A DNA stretch of 64,000 nt. Source: Sycobia sp. Sy_11. Lineage: Eukaryota > Arthropoda > Insecta > Hymenoptera > Epichrysomallidae. The stretch is from the NCBI GenBank assembly GCA_018907035.1, contig JACCIC010000226.1, forward strand, positions 607,001 through 671,000, read 5' to 3'. The notes beneath the pieces were generated by a model. It was not told the DNA's origin. It saw only the letters and a list, made by a program, of their open reading frames with translations, and made no database searches. Below are positions 5,076-62,906 of the stretch, in pieces. The translations under genes and the position numbers were made by a program. Each line of letters begins with the position of its first letter. Position 1 is the stretch's first letter.

Positions 5076-5623
5076 ATAATACGAATATTTGTACATTTTT
5101 CATTACATTAATAATTTAGAAAATCGAAATTCATGTTCAGAAATAATATTATTTTGGTACGTCGTTTGTTTCGAGAATCTTTATATTCTACTCGAAACTA
5201 AAATTTCGGACGTATTTTAGTACAATAAAATCTAGACGTACTTCAGCATCCTGGAATATTGGTATATTAGATGATTTCTCAGGTTTCGTACTGCGTATAT
5301 AAAAAAGGGTGGAAGGGTCGTAAACAGTGCATTACTGCGGCTCCGCTTCGTTCCGAATTTTCCAGGTGGGCGGGAAAGTACAATCGGCGCGGGAAATGAG
5401 AGGATACTTCGGCCCGCACCGATCGCGGACGGTCCACAGCTAGACTGCATTGCTAAGGCCACATCTGGTCCGACTTTTTATTACTGGAAGGCGTGCGCCG
5501 CACAGGCATTTGGCAATGAGTTTCGTCATTAGGCGAGACGCAGACAGTTTATATATACAAATATATAAACGTATTTATTCTCACGGATTATCCCGAAAAT
5601 ATCTACGAATCTTGCCTTACTTT

Positions 5624-5693
<70 letters not shown>

Positions 5694-5746
5694 ATAGAAT
5701 ATCATATAATATCATATCATAACATATCATACTTCATATCATATCA
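5076..5746. other. Intergenic DNA upstream of Helitron copy A
   Basis: No gene is recognised. A GC-richer stretch lies at about 5300-5540. A (TA)n run at 5628-5692 is followed by degenerate ATATC pentamers leading into the Helitron-like 5' end. Confidence 0.5.
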
Positions 5747-6021
5747 TCATACTAATTTATTAAGACAAAGCGTGTTTTTGTTTGTACTCGATAACCGAAA
5801 AAACTACTGAACCAATTGTTCTGAAATTTGACATATAGATTCTATATTGTCTTGAGAAGGTGATGGGCTATGTCTTTTATCGAAAATGATTTTACTTTCA
5901 TCAATAAATTAAGTTAATTGTTTTAACAATCAGTTTCACCAGCAGCCTCTAGGTGGCGTCTTGAATCACGAACATCAACTCAACGTAGTCCGCTTAAAGT
6001 ATTAATACCAGGCCAGCTCAA

Positions 6022-6033
6022 ACGAATGTTCAT
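6022..6033 (+). repeat. Target-site duplication of the Jockey LINE, left copy
   Basis: ACGAATGTTCAT recurs at 10615-10626 directly after the LINE poly(A). In uninterrupted Helitron copies B and C this sequence occurs once, continuous with what follows the LINE here, which supports a true target-site duplication. Confidence 0.85.
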
Positions 6034-6581: not shown

Positions 6582-7877
6582 GTGGACATAGACACCGACC
6601 TCGACGGTCTTCCCCCCCAAAAGCTGATAGAAATTATCATCGGCCTCCGGGATCAGATTGGCCGCCTACAAAATATAATAACCACCACCACAACAGAACC
6701 AACCTTCTCTCAATCGGTGGCAACATCACGCTACACCATCGGAACTTCTACGTCTTCCTCGTCCGCCATGGATTTCTTTCAGGAGGCAGCAATTTTTGCA
6801 CTCCCGCTACCAAAATAACCGTCTCCGAATCAACTCCGATCTCTGAAGAAACCGAGTTCATAAAGCAAAGCCGTAAACGGATCCGCGTTGCCAAATCCAC
6901 ACCAACGCTCTCCGATCTGGATTCTGACACTGAAAAAGAATCTCCCATCGCTGTTCGACCCCCACCCCATCATCATCCGCCAGAAAATGATTTGCCCAAA
7001 GCTAAAGATCGTCATAGAGAAGGCCGGAATCTCCGTTCGCGGGGCCGTCAACACCTCTGACTCGGTCAAGGTGTACGCGGCAATGGTAGACGACTTCAGG
7101 CACCTAACGGCCCGCCTAGAAAATACTAAGATACAATATACCACCAACCAACTCCCCGAAGAACGGGACTTGGTTGTAGTCATTCGTGATATTAACGAAG
7201 CCATCGAAGACGAAGACATCCTGAATGAACGAAACTCGTAAGGTTACGCCCCACGACGCATTCACAGAATGCGTAGCGGCGAAAAAATCTGGCCGCTAGT
7301 GACCTTTCACCTAAACCCCTACTCACCCGCCGCTAAGTCAATCTTCGACTTAAGCACCATCGGTGGCCTCAACATAAAAGTGGAGGCAAAGAGGAAGTTG
7401 AAAGTCACGCCGGAGTGCCGGCGTTGCCTCAAATATAATCACACGTCAAACTACTGCCACATTGCATGAGCCTGCGCTTTTTGCAGCAAAAGTCACGCCA
7501 CCCCGCCATGTCATCTAAAAGACAATAAATACGCGCGCCCCACCTGCGCCAACTGCAAAGGTGAGCACAGGACAACTTACAGGGGCTGCCCCAAAGTCCC
7601 AAAGAAGGACAAGCCACCCTAAAAACAAGTGAAGCCGGTAAATGTTCCCAAAACCCGTAACAACCCCCACCCCAGCTCACACAAAAAAAGCACCATCCCC
7701 AATCGTCAACAAAATTGGGCAAACCTCAACCGCACCACATATGCGAACATAGTGAGTAACAGAGAGCATCAGCGGCACCATTACAAATCAACTCGCCTCC
7801 CATTGCGTCCGAACTGCAAAACATCATAATGAAGTTCGTCACGAACATTACCGCCGCTCTCTGCAGACCCAATAATG
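6582..7877 (+). pseudogene. Jockey ORF1 (Gag-like nucleic-acid-binding protein), broken
   Basis: In the family this protein binds element RNA. The frame opens at a GTG at 6582 where an ATG would be expected. It shifts near 6818 and 7241, has a stop at 7467-7469 and another at about 7621. A conserved block around 6990-7240 precedes the zinc-knuckle region, which starts at CRRCLKYNHTSNYC (from about 7417) and continues with ACAFCSKSHATPPC and TCANCKGEH, giving three CCHC-type knuckles as in Jockey-type Gag proteins. The last residues, ending at about 7877, overlap the ORF2 start, a normal arrangement for the clade. Confidence 0.75.
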
Positions 7878-10311
7878 GCTAATCCCGAGATAAAGATCCT
7901 CAACTGGAACGCCAACAGCATCCTCTGCAGAAATAGATCCCTAGAACTCCTCCAACTCTTGGAGGAGGAAAACATCGCGATTGCCTGCATCACAGAGACC
8001 CACCTCAACCCATCCCACAAACTCTTCCTTCCAAATTACATCACATATAGGAAGGACAAAGAGCACTCTAACGGTAGGAGCGTGGCAATCCTCGTCCACA
8101 AATCCCATCGTCGCCGTGGAATTACAACTACCTCCATCTGCGGGACAATAGGGGTTGAAATTTCCCTCCAAAAAGGTCCCTTGACGGTAATTGCATGCTA
8201 TAACTCTCCACAACTCCAAAACAACTTTAAAGATATTTCCTTGCTTCTCAGCAACAACACCCCCACAATCACCACCGGGGACCTAAATGCTAGGCACCCC
8301 TCTTGGGGCTACAGCTCCAGAAACAGCAACAGCCGCGCTCTTCTCAGAAAAACAATCCGGCATGATTTTACAGGGGAAGCTCCTCCCTCCCCCACCCACT
8401 TTTCGAGCTCCCCACAACACGCACCAGACATTCTCGGTATTTTTCTCACTAAAAGTATCACACCCCTAAGCGATCCCCGGATTATCTGTGCACTGAGCTC
8501 AGACCACAGCCCAGTGATCCTTGCCTTCCATGCACCACCCATCTCTCTCCCGTCACACACAGAACACATCGAATGGCTACATCTCAAATTTAACCTAGAG
8601 AACTCAGCTTTTATGCAGATCCATATTATCGATCTGTCAAATCGATCAAGAGATCACCTCCCTGTCTAACTACATCACCCACGCTGTTAGAATCGCTACA
8701 TACCCCCGCCCTCCACAGGGCACTAACATTAACCTCCCCGACGGTATTTTGAAGCTAATTAATCAAAAGAATAGAATCCGGAAGAAATGGCAACATCTTA
8801 GAACTCCATTTCTCAAAACCCAACTCAACTCCTTAAAAAGGGACATCCACTCTCGGATAAACGAGCTCAGAAACAGCCGCTTCAACGATTTCATCACTGA
8901 AACCAAAACTCACCCCAAAAACGTCTGGAAGGTGATAAAATCTATACGACGCAGTCGCCCTTACCTCCCACCACTCAAGCAAAATCTTCTCACTCGATGA
9001 AAAAAAGGCCGAGATCTTCGCATCATCTCTCAGCAATCAGTCCTCACCTCTACCCAGGGCACCAGAACTCTCACGCTTTCATGAGCATGTCACCCAGACA
9101 GCTCAATACATCCTCCCTTCAAACAGGGACATTACCCCTACCTCCCCCAAAGAGATAAGCGACATCATTCGCAATCTTCAAAGCAAGAACACCGGTGGTG
9201 CTGGCAAAATCAATAACAACACACTAAAAATCCTCCCCCATAAACACATCGTGTCCATCTGCAATATCGTAAACGCAATGATGAGACATCAATACTTCCC
9301 CAAGGCCTGGAAAACGGCCATAGTGGTCTGCCTTACAAAAGCCGGGAAGTCCCTCAACGACCCCGCAAGCTATCCTAAAACGCCTCTCTACCTCGGTCAC
9401 CAGAAAAAACCTCATGCCTGATTGTCAGCATGGGTTCCACACAGGACATAGCAACTGTCACCAACTTCTCAGAGTTACGGAACTCATTGCTGACAACATG
9501 AACAGACGACTGCACACAACGATGCTGCTGCTAGATGTCCAGCAAGCCTTCGACAGGGTATGGCATGACGGGCTCGTCTACAAGCTCAATGCCAATGACA
9601 TCACCCACTATTTAATCCGGATAATAAAGTCGTTCCTATCAGACTGATTTAGTCGAGTTAGGGTAGGCAACTTTCCGCTCCAAAGGCCATCTTAGCCGGC
9701 GTCCCTCAAGGGTCTAAGCTCTCCTCCCCCTACTTTTTACTTTTTTCTGTCACGATCTTCCCATAAAATCAACTGGTACTCACTGTGAAGACTCTCCATC
9801 AACGAAAGCAAGTCCATCAAAACCGCACCCTTCCGAACATATCGATCAAAGGCTTGGAGTGACGTTCGACAGGAACCTATCCTGGACAAACACCTCCGCC
9901 TAACCAGGAGCAAAAATGTTAGGAGCCTTCTTAAAGCTCAAACCTTTCTTCCATAGCAAAACCCTGTCATCCAGAACAAAGACCAGAGCCTTCTCCGCCA
10001 CCTTCAGGAGCATTGCCACATATGCCATCGCCATCTGGGGGTCCATTCCTCTTGATAGACTTCAACGACTCCAAGGCACCTACATGAGGCTGCTACGCTC
10101 TTCCCTCAACACCCCTTGGTACTTAAGGAACACTCAAGTACTTAAGGAAACTAACCTTCTTGCTGTCAACGATTACGCGAACAAATTCGCCAAAAATCTG
10201 AGAGAATCAATTAAACAGTACCCGAACTCAGGAATCCCATCCCTGAGTAGTATCCTTCATAAATTGACGGATCTCTACAGGAGGCCTTGCCAACTGATCA
10301 ACGATGCGTAA
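7875..10311 (+). pseudogene. Jockey ORF2 (endonuclease and reverse transcriptase), broken
   Basis: The first open block (7875-8669, 264 codons) is a nearly complete APE-type endonuclease. It has NWN near residue 13, ITETHL, GDLNARHPSWG and SSDHSP, covering the expected catalytic motifs. Later blocks (8749-9000, 9414-9647, 9916-10311) contain reverse transcriptase pieces: HGFHTGHSNCHQLL, motif A LDVQQAFDRVWHDGL, and a GVPQGSKLS-like motif B near 9700. The FADD-type motif C that should follow is absent, because sequence jumps to a later region (GVTFDRNLSWT, near 9857). I infer an internal deletion between about 9770 and 9780. No RNase H is seen. Confidence 0.8.
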
Positions 10312-10614
10312 CCCCATCAACCACCATCGGCCACTCCGTGCGTAAGCCTATGCCTCCATGAAGGCGCAGCCTCTAATCTCACCAATTCCTCCCCCTATCC
10401 ACATCCCCCTTCTGCTCCCCCACCCCCTACACCGTTTCATTAATAATTTTATCCAAAAAGGTAAAGGGAATGATACCTCCGGGTAGGAATCCCTGCGGGG
10501 AGGGGTTTTAGTCAGTAGGCATGCAAACAAAGGCTCCATGAATCAGACACTGCCTCTCTTAGAGAGGTGTCTATAGAAGATTTCCCCTCCACGCGTTACC
10601 AAAAAAAAAAAAAA

Positions 10615-10626
10615 ACGAATGTTCAT
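10615..10626 (+). repeat. Target-site duplication of the Jockey LINE, right copy
   Basis: ACGAATGTTCAT follows the A-tract and matches 6022-6033 exactly; Helitron sequence resumes directly after it. Confidence 0.85.
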
Positions 10627-10783
10627 ATTCAATTTGTGATTCGAATCCTAAAGGAGGTGTGACGTTAGTCGATATTAACCTTTTTTGGTCTTCAGGGTAA
10701 TCTGACATTATTCACCTTATGGATATCTTTTGATTTTTGTAAATTTCATTTTCTCTTAGGTGGAAAATGTCTCTGGCTATCCC

Positions 10784-10792
10784 CCCCTCTCT

Positions 10793-10865
<73 letters not shown>

Positions 10866-10880
10866 TCTCTCTCTCTCTCT
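10784..10880. repeat. (CT)n microsatellite inside Helitron copy A
   Basis: This long CT run lies at the same place in the element as the (CT)n run of copy B (21614-21684). Copy C lacks it, so the tract appears to be an expansion at a fixed internal site. Confidence 0.9.
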
Positions 10881-11298
10881 GGCTATATCTCTCTGTCTTT
10901 TTTTCTTCTTCTCTTGTAAAATGGTTCTGTATGCCAAATCATACTGAATATAGTTTGTGACGACAAATTATATTTTTATTTTTATACATTCTATTAACTT
11001 CAGAATTGTAACAAGAGACAATGTTTTTTTAGTTCAAAAAAAATCATGGCAAAATAGGGTTCTTTACTAACAAGCACGAAAATATGTATATGTAAATAAA
11101 ATATATCGTCACTTCTGCATAAAAAGACAAATTCATCGTCTGCTTAAAAAATATTCTATGCGCATAACAACATTTTTCTTGAATTTCAGTTAACATCACT
11201 ACGAAAATATTCACGGTATTTAATTGAAAAAATGGAAATATAAAAAACATATATATATTCTATCTATATTATATTGTACATCTTATATATACATATTT

Positions 11299-12117
11299 TA
11301 AATATGGTTTCTATTGAGTAATATTGTATTGGCGTGTACGGGCGCTTGATTACGATATTCCGTTGCCTCAAGACGATTTATATGGGCAGTTCTGTGTTCG
11401 AATCATTGAATGCTATGTCCAGGTGTCTCTGGGCGATATGAGGAAATCAAATATGAAGAAATCAGCTTCTATGGGAAGATTCGTGTTGGTACAGTAAAAT
11501 ATAATATCTACGTCTTTCCAAACGACTTCTACCGGGAGTAATTTGTTTAGTCATTAGGAAGTGATGCTAGCTTTCTCGGTACGACTTCTAATAAGACTAT
11601 CGTGCTTAGTTGGTTGGAAACGATGTTTCGGTATGTCGGCACAACCTCTACGCGGAGTTTCATGTTCAGATGATAGAATGCGACTTCTAGGTGTTTTGGT
11701 ACGACTTCTACGGGGAGTATCGTGTTTAGTTGATTGGAAACGATGTTTAGGTATGTCGGTACAACTTCTACGGGGAATTTTGTGTTCGGATGATAGAATG
11801 CGATTTCCAGGTGTTTTTTAACGACTTCTACGGGGAATTTCGTGTATAGTTGGTGGGAAACAAAATCCAGGTATGCCAGTACGATTTCTATGAATAGATT
11901 CTTATTCTATCACTCGAACACTACCCATAAAAGTCGTCCCGGGATACCTGGATATTGTATTCTACGTCCCCAACACAAAACTCTATATCGCAGTCGTCCC
12001 GAGATATTTCCTATAGTCCGAACATGATACTCTTCGAAAACGTTGTCTCGACAATTGGACATCTTTTTCTACCGCTTGAAATGGAAAGTACAATTTTCTC
12101 GATCGAAGCCATATTTA

Positions 12118-12119
<2 letters not shown>
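11299..12119 (+). repeat. 60-bp tandem array with orientation switch, Helitron copy A
   Basis: Units of 60 bases start with a variant of CGACTTCTACGGGGA and run head to tail from about 11300 to 11920. Near 11930 the orientation flips: from AGTCGTCCC onward the sequence matches the reverse complement of the unit. The array starts with AAATATGGTTTCTA and ends with the complement of a similar sequence, giving inverted ends. Because 60 is a multiple of three, an 86-codon frame stays open across units (11561-11821) with 20-residue repeats; I do not regard that as proof of coding. Confidence 0.8.

Positions 12120-12172
<53 letters not shown>
12120..12172. repeat. (TA)n microsatellite inside Helitron copy A
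   Basis: This TA run lies between the 60-bp array and the conserved 3' terminal segment starting GAGTACTTTTTACTTAG. Confidence 0.9.
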
Positions 12173-12175
<3 letters not shown>

Positions 12176-12228
12176 TACTTTTTACTTAGATGTTATTGAA
12201 TTGTTTATGGAATCCATCAAATTATTAT

Positions 12229-12257
12229 CTCGGGCGAAGCCGAGACGGAGGATACTA

Positions 12258-12258
<1 letters not shown>
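12229..12258 (+). other. Helitron 3' terminal hairpin and CTAG end
   Basis: CTCGGGCGAAGCCGAG folds into a stem of five to six base pairs. After ten bases comes CTAG followed by T. Hairpin plus CTRR a short distance downstream is the known Helitron terminator. The same arrangement occurs at 53698-53727, ending CTAA. Confidence 0.85.
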
Positions 12259-20009: not shown

Positions 20010-21183
20010 TTCCTAAAGAAAAGGCTTTATCTTCAAAAACCCTGCAAAGATGAAAAAATTTATATTACAACAATATTGATCATTATTTCCAAATTATTCA
20101 CTCAAATATTTACGATACACTTAGAAATACTCAATTGTTTTAATAGGTATTCTATGTTACAATAATTTTCAATCTTAAAGCTTCTTTTGCAATACTGAGG
20201 AGTATTTCTGCAGTACTAATACAACTTTACAGTATTATAAGTAGTTTTGAACAACGGGTAACAGATTTTCTTGAAATTATTTCAGCATTATTCTCCACAT
20301 TCTATTCTTTTCTTGTATATCCTTATCATTATATTATTTCTCTCTTATGTAGGTACGTAACTGTTTAAGAATATTAAACATATCATTTTTAAATTCATGT
20401 AATTTTACATGCGCGAAACTTGACGGGCTTGGAATCTGTCTAATCTATGGTCGTCAATTACGGTATTCTCCCTTAATAGAAAAAAGAGAAAAGAACAATC
20501 GTTTTTGTATCAAGAAACGGTAAAACATAATTTCCCAAAAAATTTTCTCATATTGCAATAGTAGTCAACTTTTTATGCTTAAAAAGAAAAGCCTCGTTTT
20601 CTTTCACTTGTTCCCACACCTTGCAGCATTAGTACAGCTGTTTGCATGCGATACAACAAATAAGAAAGCACGAATTGCCCATACATGAGCACACGAAATT
20701 TAGTGAAAGCGATAAGTCCACAAAAATATAAATAGTTTTGTAATGAATTATCTAAAAAAACCATACATTTGTCAATACTAAAAAATTTGAATCTGCTATT
20801 ACATCGCATTAATATTTGTATAAATAAAATTTTATATATAATAATAAAATAATAATAAATAAAAAAACAATTTCCTATACTATAAAAAACAGATCAGTAT
20901 ATTAACTGATACTAGAAAAAGTCTCATCACCACATATTTTATATGATATTGAAAATAAAGTTATCATTTTTAGAACAACATATGCTAGATAAAAAAAAGT
21001 GTATGGCAATAATAACTAAATTCAATAGAGTTTCAATTGCCAAATTTATTGTTTTTACAATTTAATCATATAACAACAACAGAACAACAGAGGTGTAGAA
21101 CTATACGGTATTAATCCTACATAGTGCAGTTTTAAAGTTTTTTAAAACCAACAAGAAAAAATTATATATCATATGATATCATA
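20010..21183. other. AT-rich intergenic DNA
   Basis: No gene or recognisable element is seen. The last 30 bases contain ATATC pentamers that precede Helitron copy B. Confidence 0.5.
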
Positions 21184-21611
21184 TCATACTAATTTATAAA
21201 GACAAAGCGTGTTTTTGTTTGTACGCGATACCCGAAAAAACTACTGAACCGATTCTTCTGAAATTTAACATATAGATTTTATATTATATTGGGAAGGACA
21301 TAGGCTATGTTTTTTATTGAAAATCATTTTACTTTCATCAATTAATTAAGTTAATGGTTTTAACCATCAGTTTCAATAGCGGTCACTACGTGGCGTCTAG
21401 AATGACGAACATTAAATCAAAGTAGTCCGCTTAAAATATTAATACCAGGCCAGCTCAGACGAATGTTCATATCCAACTTTGGGATTCGTATCCTAAAGAA
21501 GGTGTGGCATTAGTTGGTATAACCTTTTTTGTTCTTCAGGTTAATCTGACACACTCTCGCACCTTATAGATATCTTTTAATTTTTGTTAATTTTATTTTC
21601 TCTTACGTACG

Positions 21612-21613
<2 letters not shown>

Positions 21614-21684
<71 letters not shown>
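21614..21684. repeat. (CT)n microsatellite inside Helitron copy B
   Basis: CT run at the position homologous to 10784-10880 in copy A. Confidence 0.9.
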
Positions 21685-21688
<4 letters not shown>

Positions 21689-22076
21689 TTCTTTTTCCTT
21701 CTCTAATAAAAAAGTTCTCTATGCCAAATCATACTGAATATAGTTTGTGACGACAAAATATAGTTTTGTTTTTATAAATAATATTAATTTCAGAATTGTG
21801 GCAAGAAGCTATATTTTTCTTAGTTTGAACAAAAGCAATGATGACAAAATAGGATTCTTTACCAACAACCTTGAAACTATGAATATATAATCGTCGCTTC
21901 TTTATAAAAGAGCAATATCCATCGTCTGCTTAAAAAATATGTTATTCGGATACTAATATTTTGTTTAAATTTCAGTTGGCAATACTACGAAAAAAATTCA
22001 CGTATTCACGTATTTAATTGAAAAAACGGAAATATACGATATATATATTATATTGGACATATTATATATACACATT

Positions 22077-22984
22077 TTAAATACGGTTTCTATTAAAAAA
22101 TATTTTATTGGCGTGTACGGGCGGTCGATTATGATACCCCATTGCCTCAAGACGATTTCTAAAGGCAGTTGTGTGTTCCGATGATATGTCCAGGTGTCCG
22201 TGTACGGGGAATATTGTATTTAGTTGATAAAAAACGACGTCCAGATATGAGGAAATCAACTTCTATAGGAAGATTCATGTTGAGACGGTACTCTTTCCGA
22301 ACGACGTCTACGGGGACTACGGGGACTATCGCGTTTAGTCGTTAGGAAGCGATGCTAGGTTTCTCGGGACAACTTCTACTGGGACTATCGTATTTCGTTG
22401 GTCGGAAACGATGTTTAGGTACGTCGGGACAACGTCTACGAGGACTTTCGTGTTCGGATGATAGAATTCGATTTCCAAGTGTTTTGGAACGATTTCTATG
22501 GGGAATTTCATATTCGGAGGGTAGAAGATGATGTCCAGGTATGACGGGACGATTGCTACAGGGTATATCATGTTTAGTTGATAGAAAACGAAGTTCAGGT
22601 ATATAGGCTCAACTTCTACGGGGAGTTTCGTGTTCGGATAATAGAATGCGATTTCCAGATGATTTGTAACGACTTTTACGAGGAGTGTTATGTATAGTTG
22701 GTGGGAAACAATGTCCAGGTATATCATTACGACTTCTATGAAGAGATTAGTATTCCATCATTCGAACACGCACACTCCTAGTAAGAGTCGTCCCGGGATA
22801 ACTAGACATTGTATTCTACCTCCCCAATACAAAACTCTTTATAGCAGTCGTCCCGAGATATTTCCTATAGTCCGAACATAATGCTCTCTGCAAGTCTCTG
22901 TAAACGTTCTCGAGACACTTGCACATCTTTTTCTACCGCTCGAATTCGAAAGTACAATTTTCTGCATTGAAGCCGTATTTAATA
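22077..22984 (+). repeat. 60-bp tandem array with orientation switch, Helitron copy B
   Basis: Head-to-tail units related to CGACTTCTACGGGGA run from about 22130 to 22780, then inverted units run to about 22980. The ends are AAATACGGTTTCTAT and the complement of a similar sequence. A 130-codon minus-strand frame (22727-22335) stays open across six units and reads 20-residue repeats of the type VVPxxLxIxFYxPNTK. Similar but shorter frames occur in copy C. Confidence 0.8.
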
Positions 22985-23193
22985 TGCATATATATATAGT
23001 ATAAAATGGTCGGTAAAATATGCACTTTTTGAAGTGGACGCTACATTAAACCAGCTTTTTATACAGATGCGACGATAGGTAAATTACGGTCAATTATTTA
23101 TAGAAACATAGATTTTTATATATAGAGTACTTTTTACTTAGATATTATTGAATTATTTATGAAATCGGTTAAATTGTTATCTCGGAGGAAGCC

Positions 23194-23197
<4 letters not shown>

Positions 23198-26946: not shown

Positions 26947-27013
26947 AATCATATCATATCATCACATCATATTATATCATATCATATCATATCATATCAT
27001 ATCATATCATATC
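26947..27013. repeat. (ATATC)n pentamer microsatellite at the Helitron 5' end
   Basis: Near-perfect ATATC units end exactly where Helitron copy C starts. Shorter or degenerate versions precede copies A (about 5696-5750) and B (about 21165-21188), so the tract travels with, or expands at, the element 5' end. Confidence 0.85.
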
Positions 27014-28460
27014 ACACTAATTTATAAAGACAAAGTGTGTTTTTGTTTGTACGCGATAACCGAAAAAACTACTGAACCGATTGTTCTGAAATTTGACACA
27101 TAGATTCTATATTATCTTGGGAAGGACATAGGCTATGTTTTTTATTCAAAATCATTTTACTTTCATCAATAAATTAAGTTAATATTTTTAACAATCGGTT
27201 CCATCAGCGACTACTAAGTGGCGTCTTGAATCACGAACATCAACTGAAAGTAATCCGCTTAAAGTATTCATACCAGGCCAGCTCAAACGAATGTTCATAT
27301 CCAACTTTGGTATACGTATCCTAAAGAAGATATCGTTTGATATCTTCTTTATGGTTATCGTTTGATTTTTGTAAATTTTATTTTCTTTATACATTCTATT
27401 AACTTCAGAATTGTGACAAGAGACTATGTTTTTTTTAATTCGAACAAAAGGAATGATGGCCAAATAGGATTCATTACCAACAACCTCGAAACTATGTATA
27501 TATAAATAAAATATATCGTCACTTCTGCATAAAAAGGCAATATCCATCGCCTATTTAAATAATATGCTATGTGAATACTAACATTTTGCTTGAATTTCAG
27601 TTAACATCACTACGAAAATATTCACGGTATTTAATTGAAAAAATGGAAATATAAAAAGCATATATATATTGTATGTATATTATATTGTACATCTTATATA
27701 TACATATTTTAAATACGGTTTCTACTGAGTAATATTGTATTGGCGTGTACGGGCGTTTAATTACGATATTCCGTTGCCTCAAGACGATTACTATACGCAG
27801 TTGTGTGTTCGGATGATAGAATGCGATATCCAGGTGTCTCTGGGCTATTTCTACGGGGAATATCGTATTTACTAAATGGAAAACGAGCTCTAGGTATGAG
27901 GAAATCAACTTCTATGGAAAGATTCCTATTGGGACAGTAAAATACGATATTTAGGTCTTTCCGAACGACTTCTATGGGGAGTATTTTGTTTAGTTGTTAG
28001 AAAGCGATGCTAGCTTTCTCGAACCGACTTCTACTGGGACTATTGTGTTTAGTTGATAGGAAACGATGTTTAGGTATATCGGGACAACCTGTTCGGGGAG
28101 TTTCGTGTTCGGATGATAGAATGCGATTTCCAAAAAATGATTTGGAACGACTTCTACGGGGATAGTCGTATATAGTTGGTGGGAAACAATGTCCAAGTAT
28201 GTCAGTACGACTTCTATAAAGAGATTGGTATTCTATCATTCGAACACGCACGCTGCCAGTAAGAGTCGTCTCGAGATACCTGGACATTGTATTCTACCTC
28301 TCCAACACAAAACTCTATATAGCAGGCATCACGAGAAATTTCCGATAGTCCGAACATGATACTCCGAAAACGTCGTCTCGAGAGACTTGGACATCTTGTT
28401 CTACCGCTTGAACTAGAAAGTACAATTTTCTTCATCCAAGCCATATTTAATATGCAGAAG
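27012..28460 (+). mobile_element. Helitron-like non-autonomous element, copy C (3' truncated)
   Basis: The 5' part matches copies A and B (TCACACTAATTTATAAAGAC, then AAAAAACTACTGAACCGATT). The interior has the CAGAATTGTGACAAGAGACT segment and the 60-bp array. The element stops near 28460, after the array, in a (TA)n run (28478-28531). The terminal segment with hairpin and CTAG is not present. It lacks the (CT)n insertion seen in A and B. Confidence 0.75.
27710..28450 (+). repeat. 60-bp tandem array with orientation switch, Helitron copy C
   Basis: The array starts AAATACGGTTTCTAC. Forward units run to about 28240 and inverted units to about 28450, ending in the complement of the start motif. 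Minus-strand frames at 27908-27597 and 28196-27990 show the same VVPxxLxIxFYxPNTK-like 20-residue repeat as copy B. Confidence 0.8.
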
Positions 28461-37740: not shown

Positions 37741-39292
37741 ATGCCTTCAAACAGATGGCCTCAATTACAGCAGATTGTGCAGGTTTTAAATGTTTGCATA
37801 TCAATGGATCAACCAGAGATACTTAAGCGATTCTCATCACTAACAGTACTCATCCGTGTTGTGGCTCGATGCTTGAGTGCGCTGATTAATTTGAGAAGAC
37901 GAAGAGGTGGACTGAGTGCATTATCTAAATTTCGAACAGTTGACGAACTTTTTCGAGCATGCATCGTAGTTATTAAACTAGCGCAGTCTGTAGCATTTGA
38001 CAAAGAAATTAAGATGCTTCAATCAGCAAAATCCTTTACCAAGCCCAAACCAAACATTCTATGCAAATTTTCATCGAGTATTGATGAGAATGGTGTACTT
38101 CGTCTTGGAGGGCGCCTCGCATATGCAGATTTATTGCGCGATCAAAAAAAAAACTATTTTACCTCGTTCATCTCACCTCAGTAAGCTGCTTGTACTTCAA
38201 GCGCACAGCGAATGCCTCCACGGAGGTCAGACACTGACGTCTAGTTTTGTAACATCAAGAGCATGGATTTTGGGAAGAAATAGGTTGGTCAAATCTGTTA
38301 TTCATAGTTGCGTTATTTGCCATCGTGTACAGCCGCGCCCAGCTTTTCAAATGATGGGAAATCTTCCCGCCGCTCGAATGATGCCAGCTAGGCCATTTTC
38401 TACAGCAGGTCTCGACTATGCGGGGCCAATACTGATTCGTACTACCAAGGGCCGTGGCCATAAAACATACAAGGGATATATTGCTCTTTTCATCTGTTTC
38501 GCGACGTGTGCGATACATTTAGAATTAGTCAGCGACTGCACTTCCTCAATGTTCATTGCAGCATACAGACGTTTCATTAGCCGACGTGGTATCTGACGCT
38601 ATTTGTATGGCAATAATGCCACACCCTTTCGTGGTGCAGACAGAGAACTGCAAGATATGTTCAACGCGGCCTTCGACTTTTACAAATATGCCGCTTCTCT
38701 TATAGCGAATGACGGAACATCGTGGAAATTTATTCCACCAAATACTCCACATTACGGCGGCTTATGGGAAGCCGGAGTTAAATCGACAAAGTATCATTTG
38801 AAACCAGTCATCAGTGATCACAGCCTGACGTACGAAGAATTATCTACGGTGTTCATTCAAATCGAGGCCTGTCTGAACTTTCGTCCGATCTGCCCTCTGA
38901 GTAATATTAGGAAAGATCTGCACGCACCAACTCCATCTCATTTCCTTATAGGTGAGACACCGGGTTTGGTACCTAAGGAAGAAAGCCGTAAAGTTCCCGA
39001 GAATCGCCTCAATTGCTTTCAGCTCATGTAAAGAATCCGAGATAAGTTCTAGAAGCAGTGTTCTAAAGAATATCTGCCACATCTGCAGGAGAGAAGCAAG
39101 TGGAGAGACCTTGCGGAGAATTTTTCGGTCGGTCAACTAGTTTTAGTAATCGATGATCGATATCCGGCAGCTAAATGCCCACTAGCGCGCGTAATTGCTA
39201 TGCATCCAGGACCAGATGACCTTGTTAGATTAGTTACCGTTAAGACGGCAACCACCACTTTTCACCGTCACATCGCAAGGCTCAGTGAAATA
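37741..39292 (+). pseudogene. BEL/Pao integrase remnant
   Basis: The region contains LRLGGRLAYADLL, HLSKLLVLQAHSECLHGGQTL (zinc-finger part) and CVICHRVQ. The core follows with GLDYAGP (first acid), YGNNATPFRGADRELQ where the usual SDN is changed to Asn, and WEAGVKSTKYHL (the Glu). The C-terminal chromodomain-like end reads PHPGPDDLVRLVTVKTATTTFHRHIARL in part. Shifts occur near 38160, 38596 and 39031. The mutated second acid and broken frames make it inactive. Confidence 0.8.
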
Positions 39293-42517: not shown

Positions 42518-44188
42518 TTATGTTATATTTTCATTTAATTGTTGTATTTTTTTGGTTTGATTCGTTGAATCTAAATCGATTTCGTTTGCTTCAGTTTTTT
42601 GTTTCAGCTTCAGAAATTCTGGTTCAAAATTTGAGTCTGAAGAATTTTTTGCGAATATTGCAGCGAGTGCGTTGGCTATTTCTTTATTGTCGGATATTAA
42701 TCTCTTTGTGGAATCTTCAATTGCTGAAATCTGTATATATGATTTTCTTCCGTTGATGGCTTTAATTTTGTTCCACATTTCCGAACTTGTCGTGTTACTT
42801 CTAAGAGAAGAAACAAAGTTGATCCAAGATTCCTTTTTAGCCTGCTTGAGGACTCTTCGAGACATTGCTCTTTTATTTTTGTAGTTAATTTGGTTTTCGT
42901 ATGTTGGATGTTTTTTATATTGATTGAACGCTCGCTTGTACTCCCTTATTACTTTTTCACACTGGTCGTTCCACCATGGAGTGTACTTTTTTTCTGTTTT
43001 TGATTTTGTTTTAGGTATTGTTTCGTTGGCAGTTTCTATAATTAGATTAATGAAATTGTCGTTGAGATGATCAATTTCAGATGAATTGCATTTTTCGGGA
43101 TCCTTTAGTGCGTGTATTTTATCAGCTATTGTTTTTTGGTAGTTCTCCCAGTTGACCTTTTTAAAGTTCCATCTAGATTGAGAGATTGGAGGGTGAGAGA
43201 CTCTATTTTGAATGTCGATACTTATTGGAAAATGGTCGCTTCCGTAGAGCTCCGACTTTGCGTTCCACTCGAATCTATCGGCGCCGTTTGCATTACATGT
43301 TGTTAAGTCAATTGCGCTCATTTTACCGTTGGAGATATTGAAATTAGTAGGGCTTGAAGAGTTTAAGAGTGAAATATTATGCGACAGTAGTAGATTTTCG
43401 ACTATTTTTCCACGTATGACAATTTTGTAAGAGCCCCACTGCGTGTGATGACTGTTAAAGTCATCAATAATTAAAACTGGCTTAGGGAGTTGCCTTATTA
43501 TGTTAGAAATGTCATGTTCGGTTAGATTGTAGTTGTTAGGAACATACAGATTACAGATACATAATTGCATCTCACGTAATATTATGAACGTAGCAATTGA
43601 TTCTAAATTAGTGTTAATATTTAGATCGATATATTCTAGCTCTTTTTTAATTAATGTTGCGACTCCTCCGCTTGCAATAAGGCAATTTGACCTATTTTTA
43701 TGTGATATATTGTAACCTGGGATACTGCGTGCGCAGTCATTTTTAAAATTTGTCTCTTGTATACAGATGACGCCGGCCTTTTCGTCTTCAATTAATTTTT
43801 GCAAAAGTTCGACATGCACGTTAAAACCATTTATATTCCATTGAATAATTTTGCTGAAAATTTTATTTGTATTATTTTCATTGATTATTATAAAATCATA
43901 CTTATCTGTTAATTGATTTACAAATTTTTTATCCGACAAATAAAGACATACTCTGTTATTTGATATTCTTGAAGCATATAGTATGTTTTTCGGTTTTACC
44001 AGATCTCCTATTGCACAGGTGTAGTCGGTCAATGTAAGTCCTTCGATACAGTCTAAAATAAGTCCTTGTTCACGTGTGGGTATTGAGTCGGTGACATTTG
44101 CATAACCAGTGGGTCCTTTAACTTGGAAGGTAATTATATTTTTCGATGGTGATTGAGATGTGGAATAACTGGGCGAATTCGGAGGCAT
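42518..44188 (-). pseudogene. Fused I-type ORF1 N-terminus and ORF2 endonuclease (556-codon frame)
   Basis: Residues 1-105 are ORF1: GLTLTDYTCAIGDLVKPKNILYASRISNN matches other ORF1 copies in part. The frame then passes from INEN directly to NTNKIFSKIIQWNINGF, the ORF2 start. The copies at 12549-13085 and 3825-4552 show that ORF1 normally continues and ends before ORF2, so about 1 kb is deleted in frame. The endonuclease (residues about 115-330) has QWNINGF, IQETNF, DDFNSHHTQWG and GSDHFPI, close to the expected catalytic set; the usual GDFN is DDFN here. The tail (to residue 556) leads toward the reverse transcriptase. Confidence 0.8.
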
Positions 44189-44318
44189 ATTGAAGCACTC
44201 GCGTGAGCGCGGGCGCCTCGCACCTGAGCCTTGTAGGCTCTGCTATACTCGTTGAGCGTACGATAACAACCAAAATGTAAACACGTCTGCTCGTGTGAAA
44301 GTCTCGATGAGAACTGCC

Positions 44319-50688: not shown

Positions 50689-51880
50689 TGGGTGGATGAT
50701 AAGTTTCCGGTCTGACCAAGAGACAGCGTCACTAGGCCTACCTTGAGGTGGCGTTCTATAGTACCATCCTTAGATAGCTTGTAGTTTCAGTCCGATTGCC
50801 ATGTTAGATTAGGTTTGAGAGCACGCTAAACAAGACGCCTCTGTATTTTTCGTAAAAATGGAAAAGATCGAAAATCGTGTTGTCATCAAATACTTTTATT
50901 TGAAGGGGTTAACGCCGAAGGAAATTACGGAAGAGATGGACTCAACACTGGGGATATCCTCCCCATCATATTCAACCGTTAAGAAGTGGGTTTCCGAGTT
51001 TAAAAACGGTCGTGTGAGCACCTCTGATGAAGCTCGCTCAGGACTCCCCGTTGAGGTCACAACTCCAGATATGATCGAAAAAATCCATCAAATAGTGCTA
51101 AAAGACCGCAGATTAAAAGTGCGTGAGATAGCTGAGACCTGTAAGATGTGATATGAACGTGTACAAAATATTTTGCAGCAACATTTGTATATGCAAAAGC
51201 TCTGTGCAAGATGGGTGCCGCGTTTGCTAACAATCGACCAAAACTTGATTCGAAAGAACATTTCTACCGCCAATTTGGTGTTGTATAAGCGTAATCCAAG
51301 CGAATTTTTACGTCGATTCGTAACCGTTGACGAAACTTGGATCCACCACTACACTGGGCTACTGTTTTTTGAGATGCAAGAGGTATTATATACATTGATT
51401 ACCTTGACAAGGGTAAAACTATCACTGGTCAATACTACGCAGACTTATTGCAACGTTTGAGCCACGAAGTGAAAATTAAACGACCTCATTTGGCGAAGAA
51501 AAAAATCTTGTTTCACCACGATAACGCACCAGCGCACACGTCATCGTTGCAATGGTTAAATCAACGATCTGAAGTTTGAATTGATGCCGCACCCTCCCTA
51601 CTTTCCAGACCTATCCCCAGGTGACTATTATCTGTTTCCTAACCTCAAAAAATGGCTTGGCCTTAAAAGATTTGCGGACAATGAAAAAATAATCGAAGCT
51701 GTAAATGGGTATTTTAGGAGCTTGACGAATCAGTCTATAGAGATGACATTACTAGACTAAGACACCACTATGAGAAATGTGGAGAAATGTGCCTTGGAGG
51801 AGATTATATTGTGAAATAAAAAAAAATTCTTAAAAATTTTGTTTTTCTTGGTCAGGCCGGAAACTTATCAATTCACCCAG
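50689..51880 (+). mobile_element. Mariner-family DNA transposon (second lineage), inactivated
   Basis: Imperfect terminal inverted repeats of about 30 bp contain GATAAGTTTCCGG followed by T/CCTGACCAAG on the left (50690-50720) and the complement on the right (51849-51879). The 1.19-kb interior encodes a mariner transposase of a different lineage from the one at 18750. The ends have drifted and the flanking TA is clear only on the left (TACGTGGGTGG). A solo copy of the right end lies at 53796-53880. Confidence 0.85.
50858..51816 (+). pseudogene. Mariner transposase pseudogene
   Basis: The first 97 codons (50858-51148) form the helix-turn-helix region: IKYFYLKGLTPKEITEEM, STVKKWVSEFKNGR, DEARSGLPVEVTTPDMI and VLKDRRLKVREIAE. 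A TGA stop follows KM. The continuation has VPRLLTIDQN, VTVDETWIHHY (first catalytic acid), HHDNAPAHTS (second acid, about 51520) and YFPDLSPGDYYLFPNLKKWL (third acid box, about 51600). The later part is in shifted frames. The overall plan matches the mariner subfamily that includes the transposase part of vertebrate SETMAR. The catalytic residues survive but stops and shifts make the copy inactive. Confidence 0.85.
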
Positions 51881-52421: not shown

Positions 52422-53521
52422 TAAATACGGTTTCTACTAAGAAATATTGTATTGGCGTGTATGGGCGGTTGATTACGATATTCCGTTGCCTCAAGCCGAT
52501 TTCTATAGGTAGTTGTGTGTTCGGATGATAGAATTCAATGTCCAGGTGTATCTAGGCGATTTCTACGGGGAATATTGTATTTAGTTGATAGAAAACGACC
52601 TCCAAGTATGAGGAAATCAACTTCCATGGGAAGATTCGTGTGTGGACGGTAAAATACGATATCTAGGTCTTTCTTCACGACTTCGACGGGGAATATTGTG
52701 TTTAGTCGTTAGGAAGCGATGCTAGCTTTCTCGGAACGACTTCTACTGGGAGTATCGTGTTTAGTTGGTAGGACACGATGTTTAGATATGTCGGGACGGC
52801 TTCTACGGGGAGTACCGTGTTCAGTTTGTAGAAGACGATGTCCAGGTATGACGGGACGATTTGCACGTGGAATTTCTTGTTCGGACGATAGAAGACGATG
52901 TCCAGATGTCTCTGAACGACTGACTTCTTTGGGGAGTATCGTGTTTGGATAGTGGGATGAGATGTCCAAGCGCTTCGGGACGACTTCTACGGGGAATTTC
53001 GTGTTCTGACGGTAGAAAACGATGTCCTGATAGGACGGGATGACTTCTACAGGGAATTTAGTGTTCGGACGGTAGAAGACGATGTCCAGGTAGGATGGGA
53101 CGACTTCTACGGGGAATTTCGTGTTCGGACGGTAGAAAACGATGTACAGATATGATGGGACGACATCTACAGGGAGTTGTCTGTTCGAACGGTAGAAGAC
53201 GATGTCCAGATATGACGGGACGACTTCTATGGGGAGTTTCGTGTTTGGATAGTGGGATCAGATGTCGGGATGTTTAAGCTACTTCTATAAAGAGATTCAT
53301 TTTCTATCGTTGGAACACACACACTCCCAGCAAAAGTCGTCCCGGAATACCTGGACGTCGTAAACTACCTTCCCAACAAAAAACTCTCTATAGCAGGCGT
53401 CCCGAGACATGTTCTATATTACGAACATGATACTCTATAAACGTCGTCTCGAGACACTTGGACATCTTTTTTTACCGCTCGAACTCAAAAGTACAATTTT
53501 CCTCATAGAAGCCGTATGTAA
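52422..53521 (+). repeat. 60-bp tandem array with orientation switch, Helitron copy D (longest)
   Basis: About 14 forward units fill about 52430-53285. Those from 52980 to 53280 are nearly identical and exactly 60 bases apart (CGACTTCTACGGGGAATTTC at the start of each). From about 53337 three units run in the opposite orientation (TCCCGGAATACCTGGAC and so on). The final AGAAGCCGTATGT is the complement of a variant of the starting AAATACGGTTTCTA. Forward frames 52719-52952 and 53095-53277 read 20-residue repeats such as GRLLRGISCSDDRxRCPDM. Confidence 0.85.
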
Positions 53522-53723
53522 TATGTATACGTGTGTGTATTAAATACGGTTGTACATTCTGTATATACATACTGTATATACAGAAGCGATAATAGGTAAA
53601 TTATGGTCAATTATTTATAGTAATATAGATTTTTATGTATAGAGTACTTTTTACTTAGATATTATTGAATTGCTTATGAAATCGGTTAAATTATTATCTC
53701 GGGCGAAGCCGAGACGGGGGATA

Positions 53724-53727
<4 letters not shown>

Positions 53728-60659: not shown

Positions 60660-61638
60660 TCATAGAGTAGTGCATATTATGTATATAGCAATGTCAAGAT
60701 TTAGATTATTATATGGATAATATTGTGAATTTAAGAAAAGCCTCACATTACTAATATTACAATGATCAAAACGATTTACATTTGCAGCAGGTTCATTTTT
60801 TTTCTTCGTCTGTAAGCCAAGCATGATAAAACGAGGTTTTTCCAATTGTTTGGAAGTTTTCACTGTCCAGATATGTTTATTAGCGCTTGCTAGAACAGGA
60901 TATTCAAATAGTTCCCATGAACGATAACACATTGAAATAGGAGTATCCTTGCCAATAAACTTTAAAAGTTGTATTTTTTGTTTATCAGATGCAATGACAT
61001 AAGGCATTAGCCGTTCAATCTTACTTATTTTTATGTCACATTCTTCATATATAATATTAATACCAACTGTAGTACCTTCGTAGATTATTGCATTATCGTC
61101 CGATCTTGATCTTATGAGAATAAGTTCATGCTTCATATTCACTACTATTTTTTTGTAATCTTCTGCAAAGCCCAAAATCATACTCAGTGGAATAGCAACG
61201 TCAATGTTTCCTTGTTTATCCACCAGAGATATTTAACCCTTCTCCATTGCCAAGCCAGCCTGCATTTTCAAGCATGAGAGTCTCATTGGGAATAAACGAA
61301 GTCCACCCTTTCATCACACTACTTAATCCGACATTTTTACTTTTGTCTATTTCTACTCTATTAATTTCATAGCGAATTTCATCAAAAAGATGACAAATAG
61401 CATTGTTAACAAATCTAGATTTCATAGGCAAGCTGCCATCAGTTTTTTTAAACTTTCCAGTAATATGGATAGAACTTCGTGATGGTAGAAGACACAAATC
61501 TTGATGTTGGATAGAAATACGAATTTCGTCATTGTTATCAAAGCTTAGTGCTGTGTATGGCTGATGTGCGTGGATTTCGTAATGAGCAATTGACTCATCG
61601 AACACGACATCTGATTTAATTTTTAGAATTTCGTCCAT
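60660..61638 (-). pseudogene. Polinton major capsid protein, frameshifted and 3' truncated
   Basis: In the family this double jelly-roll protein forms the hexameric capsomers. The first part (61638-61216, 140 codons) opens with MDEILKIKSDVVFDESIAHY and includes SRSSIHITGKFKKTDG, FVNNAICHLFDEIRYE and the glycine-rich GWLGNGEGLN. It ends at TAA 61218-61216. The second part (from 61223 leftward, 187 codons) continues the family pattern (IDVAIPLSMILGFAEDYKKI, YVIASDKQKIQLLKF) in the neighbouring frame, so a one-base shift near 61220 splits the gene. It then ends at FLNSQYYPYNN plus a short unrelated tail. The total of about 325 codons is well short of the usual 500-650, so the 3' third or more is missing. 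MCP is a family assignment from motifs and context. Confidence 0.75.
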
Positions 61639-61659
61639 TTTTCAAGAAGCAGCAGAAGA

Positions 61660-61770
61660 TTATACAAGTGAATTTTTGTCACGAACTTTTAGACCCAGAC
61701 TTTGGAGGAACTGAATGCTCTCCGTGTTAACGGTCTCAAATTCTTCAATTGACTGATTATCGATTGACAT
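61660..61770 (-). CDS. Small ORF between the penton and major capsid genes
   Basis: An ATG at 61770-61768 opens a 36-codon frame ending at TAA 61662-61660. It reads MSIDNQSIEEFETVNTESIQ at the start and then FLQSLGLKVRDKNSLV. It begins 44 bases downstream of the penton stop (61814) and ends 22 bases before the capsid start (61638), so it fits the gene spacing of the block. It has no membrane segment or Cys/His motif and is predicted helical and acidic at its N-terminus. I do not recognise it; Polintons do carry small conserved virion genes, but a chance ORF of this size is possible. Confidence 0.4.
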   Translation of the reverse strand: MSIDNQSIEEFETVNTESIQFLQSLGLKVRDKNSLV

Positions 61771-61813
61771 GATGGAGAACTTATATGCGTGCTAGAATTA
61801 TAAACTATCCCCA

Positions 61814-62500
61814 TTATATAGATTTGATATGAAGTCTAATAGTAATTTCCTCTCCTTGAAAATTAACTAAATTTCCCTCTTGATCGACTATTCGAATTTG
61901 AAGATGATTTATAGACTTAACATTCAGTAGTAGATATATAATATGAGATGGAACTTCTATGATTTTATATCCTGGAGGAACTTTGGGCAAGAATTTATGA
62001 ATGGTATGAACCTTTTTATTGTTAATGAAAGCTCCCTCAGTAATATTACACTCGCCTCTGAGTGCATTGATTTTCAATATTTTCACTGGTAAATCAGAAT
62101 TGTGCTCTGTGTTTTCCTTGAGAATACGCGGAGTAAAGCGGAGAAGACTACCTATCGATGTTTGAGGACTAAGATCTAATGGAACACTGCACTTTATTTC
62201 ACTTCTAAACGTGTTATTATTGGCTTTCAAGGAAAAATCAATTTCTTTGGGTTTCAATGTGGTTGATAAAAATTTATGGATATCGTTAATCTCGTAACTA
62301 CCGGTGAGAAAAGTAACCACTTCCCACTGTAAATGTAGTTTATTATTTGTATTGTCAATATTCGGAATTGAGTTAAAGGTTAACAGTTCGACTAAGCCTA
62401 AAACAAATTTTTTATGCTTTGCAAGTTCAATAGAGGGAAAATAATCAGCTTCTAAAACAGAAGATCTGCCTGATAGAGTCAAAGTAAAACTATCTTCCAT
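61814..62500 (-). CDS. Polinton penton-like minor capsid protein
   Basis: This 228-codon intact frame starts MEDSFTLTLSGRSSVLEADY and includes a FPSIELAKHKKFVLGLVELLTFNSIPNI block that is characteristic of the Polinton minor capsid (single jelly-roll penton homolog). It also has INDIHKFLSTTL, and a C-terminal half ending EEITIRLHIKSI. There is no signal peptide or transmembrane segment. Its position between the protease and the major capsid gene matches the usual morphogenesis cluster. In the virion it would occupy fivefold vertices. The start is supported by the 46-base spacing to the upstream protease gene. No stop or frameshift is seen. Confidence 0.75.
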   Translation of the reverse strand: MEDSFTLTLSGRSSVLEADYFPSIELAKHKKFVLGLVELLTFNSIPNIDNTNNKLHLQWEVVTFLTGSYEINDIHKFLSTTLKPKEIDFSLKANNNTFRSEIKCSVPLDLSPQTSIGSLLRFTPRILKENTEHNSDLPVKILKINALRGECNITEGAFINNKKVHTIHKFLPKVPPGYKIIEVPSHIIYLLLNVKSINHLQIRIVDQEGNLVNFQGEEITIRLHIKSI

Positions 62501-62546
62501 GACTGATTGACCGAGAATGATTAAATTTAGACAATCAAGTCCTTCT

Positions 62547-62903
62547 TTATAGACTATCGGTTAAGAATTGAAGACAAAGGTGAACACAAATAAATGAATC
62601 GAACTTCTGATATCTTTTATAGTTGTATTTTATTTCATTTACATTGAAATATTTCATGAGATCTATGGGAGGCCTTAAATCACCAAAACTGTCAAAGTAC
62701 ATTACATCAGAACCTCTCTTTCGATAAGACACCCAATGAGTACCTTTATTCTGTGAATCATCAAGATTAACAATAGCAGATTCGTTGTACCATAGACCAT
62801 TATGAGGCAGATTATTTCTCATGAAAACGCCTCGAAAATATGGAATTTTTAATATACGTGTATATTTCATAAGATCATAATCTGATAATACGCGATTTGG
62901 CAA
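62547..62903 (-). CDS. Polinton adenovirus-type cysteine protease (maturation protease)
   Basis: This 118-codon intact frame has the fold signature of adenain-like C5/Ulp-type proteases: a catalytic His in GTHWVSYRKRG (residue about 56), YFDSFG with the Asp (about 70), and a terminal block QKFDSFICVHLCLQFL containing the oxyanion Gln and nucleophile Cys (about 105). The usual CGH is CVH here, a conservative oddity beside the active Cys. In the family it processes capsid proteins. It starts 3 bases after the PLA2-domain gene stop, which suggests co-transcription. The length is close to that of Polinton proteases without extra domains. Confidence 0.8.
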   Translation of the reverse strand: MPNRVLSDYDLMKYTRILKIPYFRGVFMRNNLPHNGLWYNESAIVNLDDSQNKGTHWVSYRKRGSDVMYFDSFGDLRPPIDLMKYFNVNEIKYNYKRYQKFDSFICVHLCLQFLTDSL

Positions 62904-62906
62904 AGT

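What the first reader, a model, noticed from the sequence alone, without database searches (positions are those of the whole stretch)
11299..12119. 60-bp repeats that reverse orientation inside a Helitron-like element: foldback-like architecture
In copies A-D a head-to-tail 60-bp array is followed by about three units in the opposite orientation, and the outer ends are an inverted pair built on AAATACGGTTTCTA. Foldback transposons have long inverted repeats made of short tandem units; here such a unit lies inside Helitron ends. It may be a foldback element captured by a Helitron, or a new class of composite element. Its RNA could form a long imperfect hairpin.
Basis: partly seen in the sequence, partly recalled or inferred. 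Interest (0 to 1): 0.75.

Follow-up and report, generated by a model that had tools for sequence, protein, structure and literature searches.

The report
Helitron carrying an inverted repeat array
A common jumping-gene family in this genome carries a block of 60-letter repeats that runs one way and then turns back on itself; the block looks like a second kind of transposon, but in the copies we read it travels as a built-in part of its carrier.

Summary
In copy A about seven to nine diverged 60-bp units run forward and about 3.5 run backward, between an inverted pair AAATACGGYTTC / GAARCCGTATTT. A unit profile finds the backward arm in 33 of 33 copies first examined and in 73 of 75 array-bearing loci read from the same 621-Mb genome. 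Of the two exceptions, one lacks the arm and one stretch ends inside the array.

The carrier has Helitron ends: a 3' hairpin, then CTAG, then T. The terminus occurs 596 times. A decayed locus with a Helraiser-like helicase, L069, ends with the same 31 bp.

The "captured foldback" reading has no direct support. Of 54 loci chosen by array similarity alone, 50 have a Helitron 5' or 3' module beside the array, and none shows two array ends in unrelated DNA. Copies lacking the left terminus lie on four contigs. The one array-less copy with both Helitron modules (L080) nests in an array-bearing clade, so it looks like a loss. The arms do not co-vary.

Most likely: a non-autonomous Helitron whose internal array became a palindrome before the family spread. 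New variant of a known kind; the palindrome's origin is open.

The parts
10601..11242 (+). Copy A: Helitron 5' part (H5), interrupted by a CT microsatellite 10787-10898; no canonical 5' end found in this copy
   Evidence: annotation; TRF
11243..11298 (+). Copy A: AT-rich left flank (..ATATTGTACATCTTATATATACATATTT) joining H5 to the array
11299..11890 (+). Copy A: forward arm, about 7-9 diverged 60-bp units; outer end AAATATGGTTTCTA at 11300-11313
11891..12119 (-). Copy A: inverted arm, about 3.5 units in the opposite orientation, ending GAAGCCATATTT (12105-12116)
12118..12172 (+). Copy A: (AT)n tract between the array and the Helitron 3' part
12173..12258 (+). Copy A: Helitron 3' part (H3); hairpin CTCGGGCGAAGCCGAG 12229-12244 and terminal CTAG 12255-12258, followed by T
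21161..22040 (+). Copy B: Helitron 5' part, starting at (TCATA)n-CTAATTTATAAAGACAAAGCG
22078..22988 (+). Copy B: array with forward arm and inverted arm (inverted from about 22750)
23011..23196 (+). Copy B: Helitron 3' part, terminal hairpin degraded
26973..27653 (+). Copy C: Helitron 5' part
27710..28450 (+). Copy C: array with forward arm and inverted arm (inverted from about 28228); Helitron 3' end missing
52422..53530 (+). Copy D: longest array in the window (13 forward units), inverted arm from about 53297; Helitron 5' part missing
53577..53727 (+). Copy D: Helitron 3' part, hairpin from 53698, ends CTAA (53724-53727) followed by T

Best explanation
The feature is the internal module of a high-copy, non-autonomous Helitron with canonical (Helitron1-type) ends. 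The module is an imperfect palindrome: several 60-bp units forward, a short turnaround, then about 3.5 units backward, usually bracketed by AT tracts. Nearly every copy read has the same layout, so the inversion most likely happened once, before the family spread. Copies then spread by rolling-circle transposition, driven by a RepHel partner that recognises the Helitron ends; the array's own ends are not needed. The forward arm grows and shrinks (2 to 23 units among loci read, kilobase arrays at two contig ends), while the backward arm stays at up to 4 units. The AT tracts on both sides go with deletions, inversions and nested insertions, including loss of the array. Shown: the anatomy, the 3' ends, the order H5-array-H3, and a decayed RepHel-type gene with the same 3' end. 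Inferred: single origin (layout, not a tree of the turnaround), that such a RepHel source moves the family, and that unit number changes by unequal exchange or slippage. Not settled: whether the first palindrome came from a foldback/MITE insertion or from an inverted duplication inside the Helitron.
For: Backward units in 33 of 33 copies, 63 of 65 (E at most 0.01) and 10 of 10 further loci. Of 65 array-bearing loci: H5 upstream in 46, short left flank in 51, right flank motif in 53, H3 downstream in 56, 3' hairpin+CTAG in 48; 64 of 65 have at least one of these. In the other direction, of 14 places chosen only by the 3' terminus, 10 carry the array; of 6 chosen by H3 similarity, 6 carry array units, one (L064) without the backward arm. 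Of 49 3' ends read in 70 loci, 46 end CTAG and 3 CTAA, and 47 are followed by T. The terminus CTCGGGCGAAGCCGAGACGGNNNATGCTAG occurs 596 times, reversed-pattern control 0. In L069 the frame 3015-4256 matches Helraiser (7lcc, E 7e-50) and PIF1 (E 3.4e-56), and the last frame 5282-5824 (Pif1 2B domain, E 3.2e-16) ends about 35 bp before the same terminus. L015, L021, L025 and L051 share loss of the left terminus and lie on four contigs. L080 has H5-(AT)n-H3 without array; its H3 nests among array-bearing copies (support 0.67-0.86) and its H5 is next to L067 (0.66), so it looks like a loss. The array grows inside Helitron parts: C456:18-6758 leads into inverted arm, H3 and terminus; C12:4-4527 starts from H5 and left end.
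Against: The sample is small against the candidates (40 scored of 4721, 3857, 2581 and 1690), and the first set leans towards copy A. L007 and L012 start almost exactly at AAATACGG with non-Helitron DNA to the left, as a free element would, although L007 has a Helitron 3' end on the right and L012 an inverted H5. Distances between modules correlate for left end and H3 (n 26, r 0.66, 0 of 500 permutations) and weakly for right end and H3 (r 0.24, p 0.03), but not clearly for the other four pairs (r 0.12-0.27, p above 0.1), including left and right array ends (0.14); the H5 alignment had outliers. L069 shares only the last 31 bp and its gene is broken; its 5' end was not matched, so partnership rests on the 3' end.
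Confidence: 0.77

Rival explanations
1. A small foldback or MITE-like element with 60-bp subrepeats in its terminal inverted repeats inserted once into an AT-rich part of a Helitron. It was immobilised there and then amplified by the Helitron, its forward arm later expanding.
For: Both ends stop at the same phase of the unit with the same TTAAATACGG sequence. Arms are near symmetric in short copies: L056:3424-3772, about 3 forward and 3 backward units, and L099, 3-4 forward and 4 backward between H5 and H3. A direct repeat ATATTGTAT brackets the segment: with up to two mismatches the left motif is in 36 of 70 loci, the right in 32, both in 20; exact both in 3; reversed-motif controls 0 and 1.
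Against: No free-standing copy among 54 loci chosen by array similarity. The only H5-H3 locus without array (L080) looks like a loss, not an empty site. The direct repeat lies in AT-rich DNA and D-type copies have a different right flank. TTAAATACGGYTTC and GAAGCCRTATTTAA occur together in only 6 of 70 loci.
Confidence: 0.35
2. The palindrome arose inside the Helitron by an inverted duplication (template switch or snap-back synthesis during rolling-circle replication on single-stranded DNA), with no second transposon involved.
For: No free-standing array among the 54 loci; in A the similarity of the two sides runs on into the AT-rich flanks (12089-12167 against 11249-11328, 81% over 83 nt). 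Self-complementary AT tracts next to both ends would prime fold-back synthesis (inference).
Against: No young, near-perfect palindrome was seen; arms are now about 67-83% alike in the stretches that align, so age blurs the test.
Confidence: 0.45
3. The hairpin is kept by selection, for example as a source of hairpin siRNA or as a structure used in Helitron replication.
For: Folding energies lie well below shuffles (z -6.6 for A; z -10.4 for L013; 20 shuffles each); the backward arm persists while the forward arm varies.
Against: Arms of the same copy match each other no better than arms of different copies (25 copies: outer 50 nt P 0.77, whole arms P 0.185). Longest perfect helices are 13-21 bp in A-D. 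L064 has lost the backward arm and still has its 3' end. No RNA data.
Confidence: 0.06
4. The array encodes a repeat protein (20 residues per 60-bp unit on the - strand).
For: Minus-strand frames of 119-182 aa cross the arrays; stops in that frame are fewer than column-shuffled units give (0.36 against 0.51 per unit).
Against: 0.36 stops per unit over 284 units is far from open; no Pfam match for the D frame.
Confidence: 0.02

Closest known systems
Canonical Helitron (Helitron1); protein relative Helraiser (PDB 7lcc)
   Same: 3' hairpin then CTRR, insertion before T, 5' end consistent with TC, and a decayed RepHel-type locus with the same 3' end in the genome (features as given in passages of PMC5148889)
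   Different: Non-autonomous; carries an internal inverted minisatellite palindrome
HINE / Helentron-associated elements with central tandem repeats (Cg_HINE of the Pacific oyster; passages of PMC7492417)
   Same: A rolling-circle element carrying a central satellite-like array, a microsatellite and a 3' palindrome
   Different: HINEs are described with subterminal inverted repeats in the two flanking modules; here the ends are Helitron1-type, the inverted pair is internal and the array itself is inverted
Tetris, foldback transposon of Drosophila virilis (passages of PMC4079207)
   Same: Inverted repeats built from tandem subunits; subunits also make kb-size satellite arrays
   Different: Tetris is described with target duplications of 8-10 bp and a middle domain; neither was established here
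Galileo / FB foldback elements (PMC4168063 seen in a search listing only; FB recalled)
   Same: Long inverted repeats with internal repeats
   Different: Independent TIR transposons (Galileo: P superfamily, from the listing)

Membership tests
Helitron (Helitron1) | 3' CTRR end preceded by a short hairpin | tested here: met
   49 3' ends read in 70 loci: 46 CTAG, 3 CTAA, hairpin CTCGG..CCGAG with up to 4 substitutions; 596 termini in the genome
Helitron (Helitron1) | 5' TC | tested here: inconclusive
   23 of 70 loci match TCATACTAATTTATAAAGACAAAGCG with up to 4 substitutions, where homology between copies begins; consistent with TC, but the first base is blurred by the (TCATA)n repeat
Helitron (Helitron1) | Insertion between A and T without target duplication | tested here: inconclusive
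   T follows the 3' end in 47 of 49; the 5' side lies in AT or ATCAT repeats, and absence of duplication was not tested
Helitron (Helitron1) | RepHel protein or a partner with the same ends | tested here: met
   Met for the 3' end only: L069 has a broken PIF1/Helraiser-like gene ending about 35 bp before the same 3' terminus; its 5' end was not matched
Foldback (TIR) transposon | Long inverted repeats made of tandem subunits | tested here: met
Foldback (TIR) transposon | Inverted repeats lie at the ends of an independently mobile element | tested here: not met
   0 of 54 loci chosen by array similarity shows two array ends in unrelated DNA; 50 of 54 have H5 or H3 beside the array. A sample, not the whole genome
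Foldback (TIR) transposon | Target-site duplication next to the inverted repeats | tested here: inconclusive
   A direct repeat ATATTGTAT brackets the segment in 20 of 70 loci (2 mismatches allowed; 3 exact) but lies in AT-rich DNA, and no ancestral empty site was found
HINE / Helentron | Subterminal inverted repeats near the element ends | tested here: inconclusive
   The inverted pair lies about 900 bp from the 5' end and the 3' end is CTAG; no separate search for subterminal repeats was made
Satellite DNA derived from a transposon | Kilobase tandem arrays of the same unit | tested here: met
   C456:18-6758 and C12:4-4527, both joined to Helitron parts

The most novel reading that the evidence does not exclude
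A foldback element with 60-bp subrepeats was absorbed by a Helitron, lost its own mobility, and became the engine of a satellite. Its forward arm expands to kilobase arrays inside Helitron ends while the backward arm stays at about three units, so one family links a foldback, a Helitron and a satellite DNA.
Probability: 0.3. Interest if true: 0.55.

Novelty: new variant of a known kind. Interest (0 to 1): 0.38.

Why it matters
Tandem repeats inside rolling-circle elements and subrepeats inside foldback elements are each known. A Helitron family in which the internal array is itself an inherited palindrome gives a natural test of how inverted repeats survive rolling-circle (single-stranded) transposition, and of how a transposon seeds a satellite: copies from 2 units to kilobase arrays coexist in one genome. 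The palindrome and its AT tracts also go with visible rearrangements (L006, L012, L056, L080).

Tried and rejected
Coding repeat: rejected. Selected hairpin: no covariation of arms. PF14214 loci L031-L050 as carriers: none of the 20 had H5, array or H3 in the 3.5 kb held; the one left-end match, L045, was an AT-rich chance match. L070, a decayed RepHel gene with an array 0.9 kb downstream, was considered as an autonomous carrier; the stretch between them matched no other locus that I compared, and D-type copies with H5 exist (L086, L088, L089), so I do not claim it. Viral contigs: two exact patterns, no match. Rfam: no match in the window. Adjacent 20 kb of the contig (L061, L062): no element. 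Mantel test: clear only for left end and H3. Papers: eight searches listed no paper whose title or shown abstract reports a Helitron with an inverted internal array. This covers the open-licence PMC library only; I saw listings, and passages of three papers.

Full report
What is there. Copy A (11299-12119) holds forward 60-bp units to about 11890 and backward units from there to 12119. The null for an ungapped 60-mer match in this stretch never passed 31 of 60 in 200 resamples; forward hits reach 47 and the best backward hit 43. A profile of forward units finds the backward arm in 33 of 33 copies (A-D and L002-L030). The outer ends read as diverged units, and the inverted pair can be followed for about 28 nt at 75-86% identity in several copies, in some to 50-78 nt; of 29 copies tested, 17 beat 50 shuffles and 12 did not.

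The carrier. I read 70 loci in array orientation: 29, the four window copies, and 37 others (L051-L060, L063-L089). In them 49 3' ends could be read: 46 CTAG, 3 CTAA, 47 followed by T, 2 by A; 23 loci match the 5' sequence TCATACTAATTTATAAAGACAAAGCG with up to four substitutions. The 3' terminus with its hairpin occurs 596 times in 621 Mb, and 0 times for the reversed pattern; the first 100 places were listed. Comparing those 100 by eye with the PF14214 places, two had such a terminus 3-4 kb downstream on the same strand. One, L069, has a broken helicase gene. Its frame 3015-4256 matches Helraiser (7lcc) at E 7e-50 and PIF1 at 3.4e-56, and its last frame, with a Pif1 2B domain, ends about 35 bp before the terminus. 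In the other, L070, the terminus belongs to an array-bearing copy lying 0.9 kb beyond a decayed RepHel gene, and I make no claim from it. The family is therefore a Helitron with at least one RepHel-type relative sharing its last 31 bp.

Does the array live outside it? Of the 65 array-bearing loci (70 read, 5 without array), H5 lies upstream in 46, the short left flank in 51, the right flank motif in 53, H3 downstream in 56, hairpin+CTAG in 48. The two short flanks could belong to the array unit rather than the Helitron, so I count H5 and H3 as the test. L012 has none of the five features, but H5 lies directly beside its array in the opposite orientation. L057 has only the short left flank, and its right end is cut before the terminus. 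Some left-side misses are due to short fetched stretches. Ten more loci were taken from a search with a short copy: 10 of 10 have units on both strands, and 8 of 10 have H5 or H3; L090 is truncated on the left (its H5/H3 matches are short and AT-rich and I do not count them) and L095 runs off the stretch. Counting loci picked by array similarity (29 + 10 + 5 + 10 = 54), 50 have H5 or H3 beside the array and none shows two array ends in unrelated DNA. Picked the other way, by 3' terminus alone, 10 of 14 carry the array.

Loss, gain and rearrangement. L080 has H5, an AT tract and H3 with no units. Its H3 sits inside a clade of array-bearing copies (support 0.67-0.86) and its H5 next to L067 (0.66), so the array was probably lost there, most simply by exchange between AT tracts. 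L015, L021, L025 and L051 lack the left terminus in the same way and lie on four contigs; L014 lacks it differently. Among the 65 loci the forward arm has 2-23 detected units, most often 9 (28 of 65; some counts are cut by stretch ends), and the backward arm 0-4, most often 3 (30 of 65). The two without backward units are L064 and L086; L086 is a stretch that ends inside the array. Two contigs begin inside kilobase arrays (C456:18-6758, C12:4-4527); one leads into backward arm, H3 and terminus, the other starts from H5 and the left end. They may be two halves of one locus (inference). L056 has three array-H3 modules in tandem, the last short and almost symmetric. L006 has a head-to-head duplicated left end.

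Function. The single strand folds far better than shuffles (z -6.6 in A, -10.4 in L013, 20 shuffles each), as any palindrome would. But within-copy arm similarity is not higher than between copies (25 copies, P 0.77 and 0.185), longest perfect helices are 13-21 bp in A-D, and the frames through the array are not kept open. I see no evidence that the hairpin is maintained for a function.

Origin. That nearly every copy has the same layout points to one origin; I did not test this with a tree of the turnaround. Two readings remain: one insertion of a small foldback or MITE-like element, or an inverted duplication inside the Helitron. For the first speak the equal phase of both ends, the near-symmetric short copies (L056, L099), and a direct repeat ATATTGTAT around the segment (left motif in 36, right in 32, both in 20 of 70 loci; exact both in 3; reversed controls 0 and 1). 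Against it speak the lack of a free copy in the sample and of an ancestral empty site. For the second speak the lack of free copies and, in A, similarity that continues into the AT-rich flanks. I lean slightly to the second.

Known systems. Helentron-type elements with central satellite-like arrays are known (passages of PMC7492417), a foldback element whose subrepeats make a satellite is known (passages of PMC4079207), and Helitron1 ends are as described in passages of PMC5148889. Eight searches of open-licence PMC listed no report of a Helitron whose internal array is itself inverted. I file it as a new variant of a non-autonomous Helitron that looks like, but was not shown to be, a foldback element. 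The host species is not known to me.

Noticed in passing
window 60660-63701 (-): A cluster of reading frames, one with a phospholipase A2-like domain (PF08398, E 1.4e-9, 62907-63701), resembling a Polinton/adintovirus-like insertion (label recalled).
   Followed up: partly
window 42518-44242 (-) and 7833-8669 (+): Endonuclease domains as in non-LTR retrotransposons (PF14529, E 2.3e-19 and 2.1e-14).
   Followed up: partly
window 37994-38596 (+) and 50819-51151 (+): An integrase zinc-binding domain (PF17921, E 2.6e-7) and a Mos1-type HTH (PF17906, E 1.4e-8).
   Followed up: partly
G000 C456:18-6758 and C12:4-4527: Kilobase arrays of the 60-bp unit reaching the contig starts, so the assembly probably breaks in this satellite; both are joined to Helitron parts (L085, L086).
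   Followed up: partly
L056 (G000:C114:4028300-4032300): Three array-H3 modules in tandem behind one H5; the third is short and nearly symmetric.
   Followed up: partly
window 53540-53551; also L085, L087, L088, L096: D-type copies carry an extra TTAAATACGGTT, in the orientation of the left end, about 20 bp after the right end, perhaps a remnant of a second unit.
   Followed up: no
window 5624-6033: A related Helitron 5' end with (ATATC)n and about 300 bp of H5 similarity; no array was detected beside it.
   Followed up: no
L094:593-642 and 1004-1053: A 50-nt inverted repeat (94%) within an array copy, perhaps another nested element.
   Followed up: no
5' ends of L004, L005, L013, L020, L051 and others: The 5'-terminal TCATA motif is itself repeated many times in tandem at the Helitron start.
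   Followed up: no
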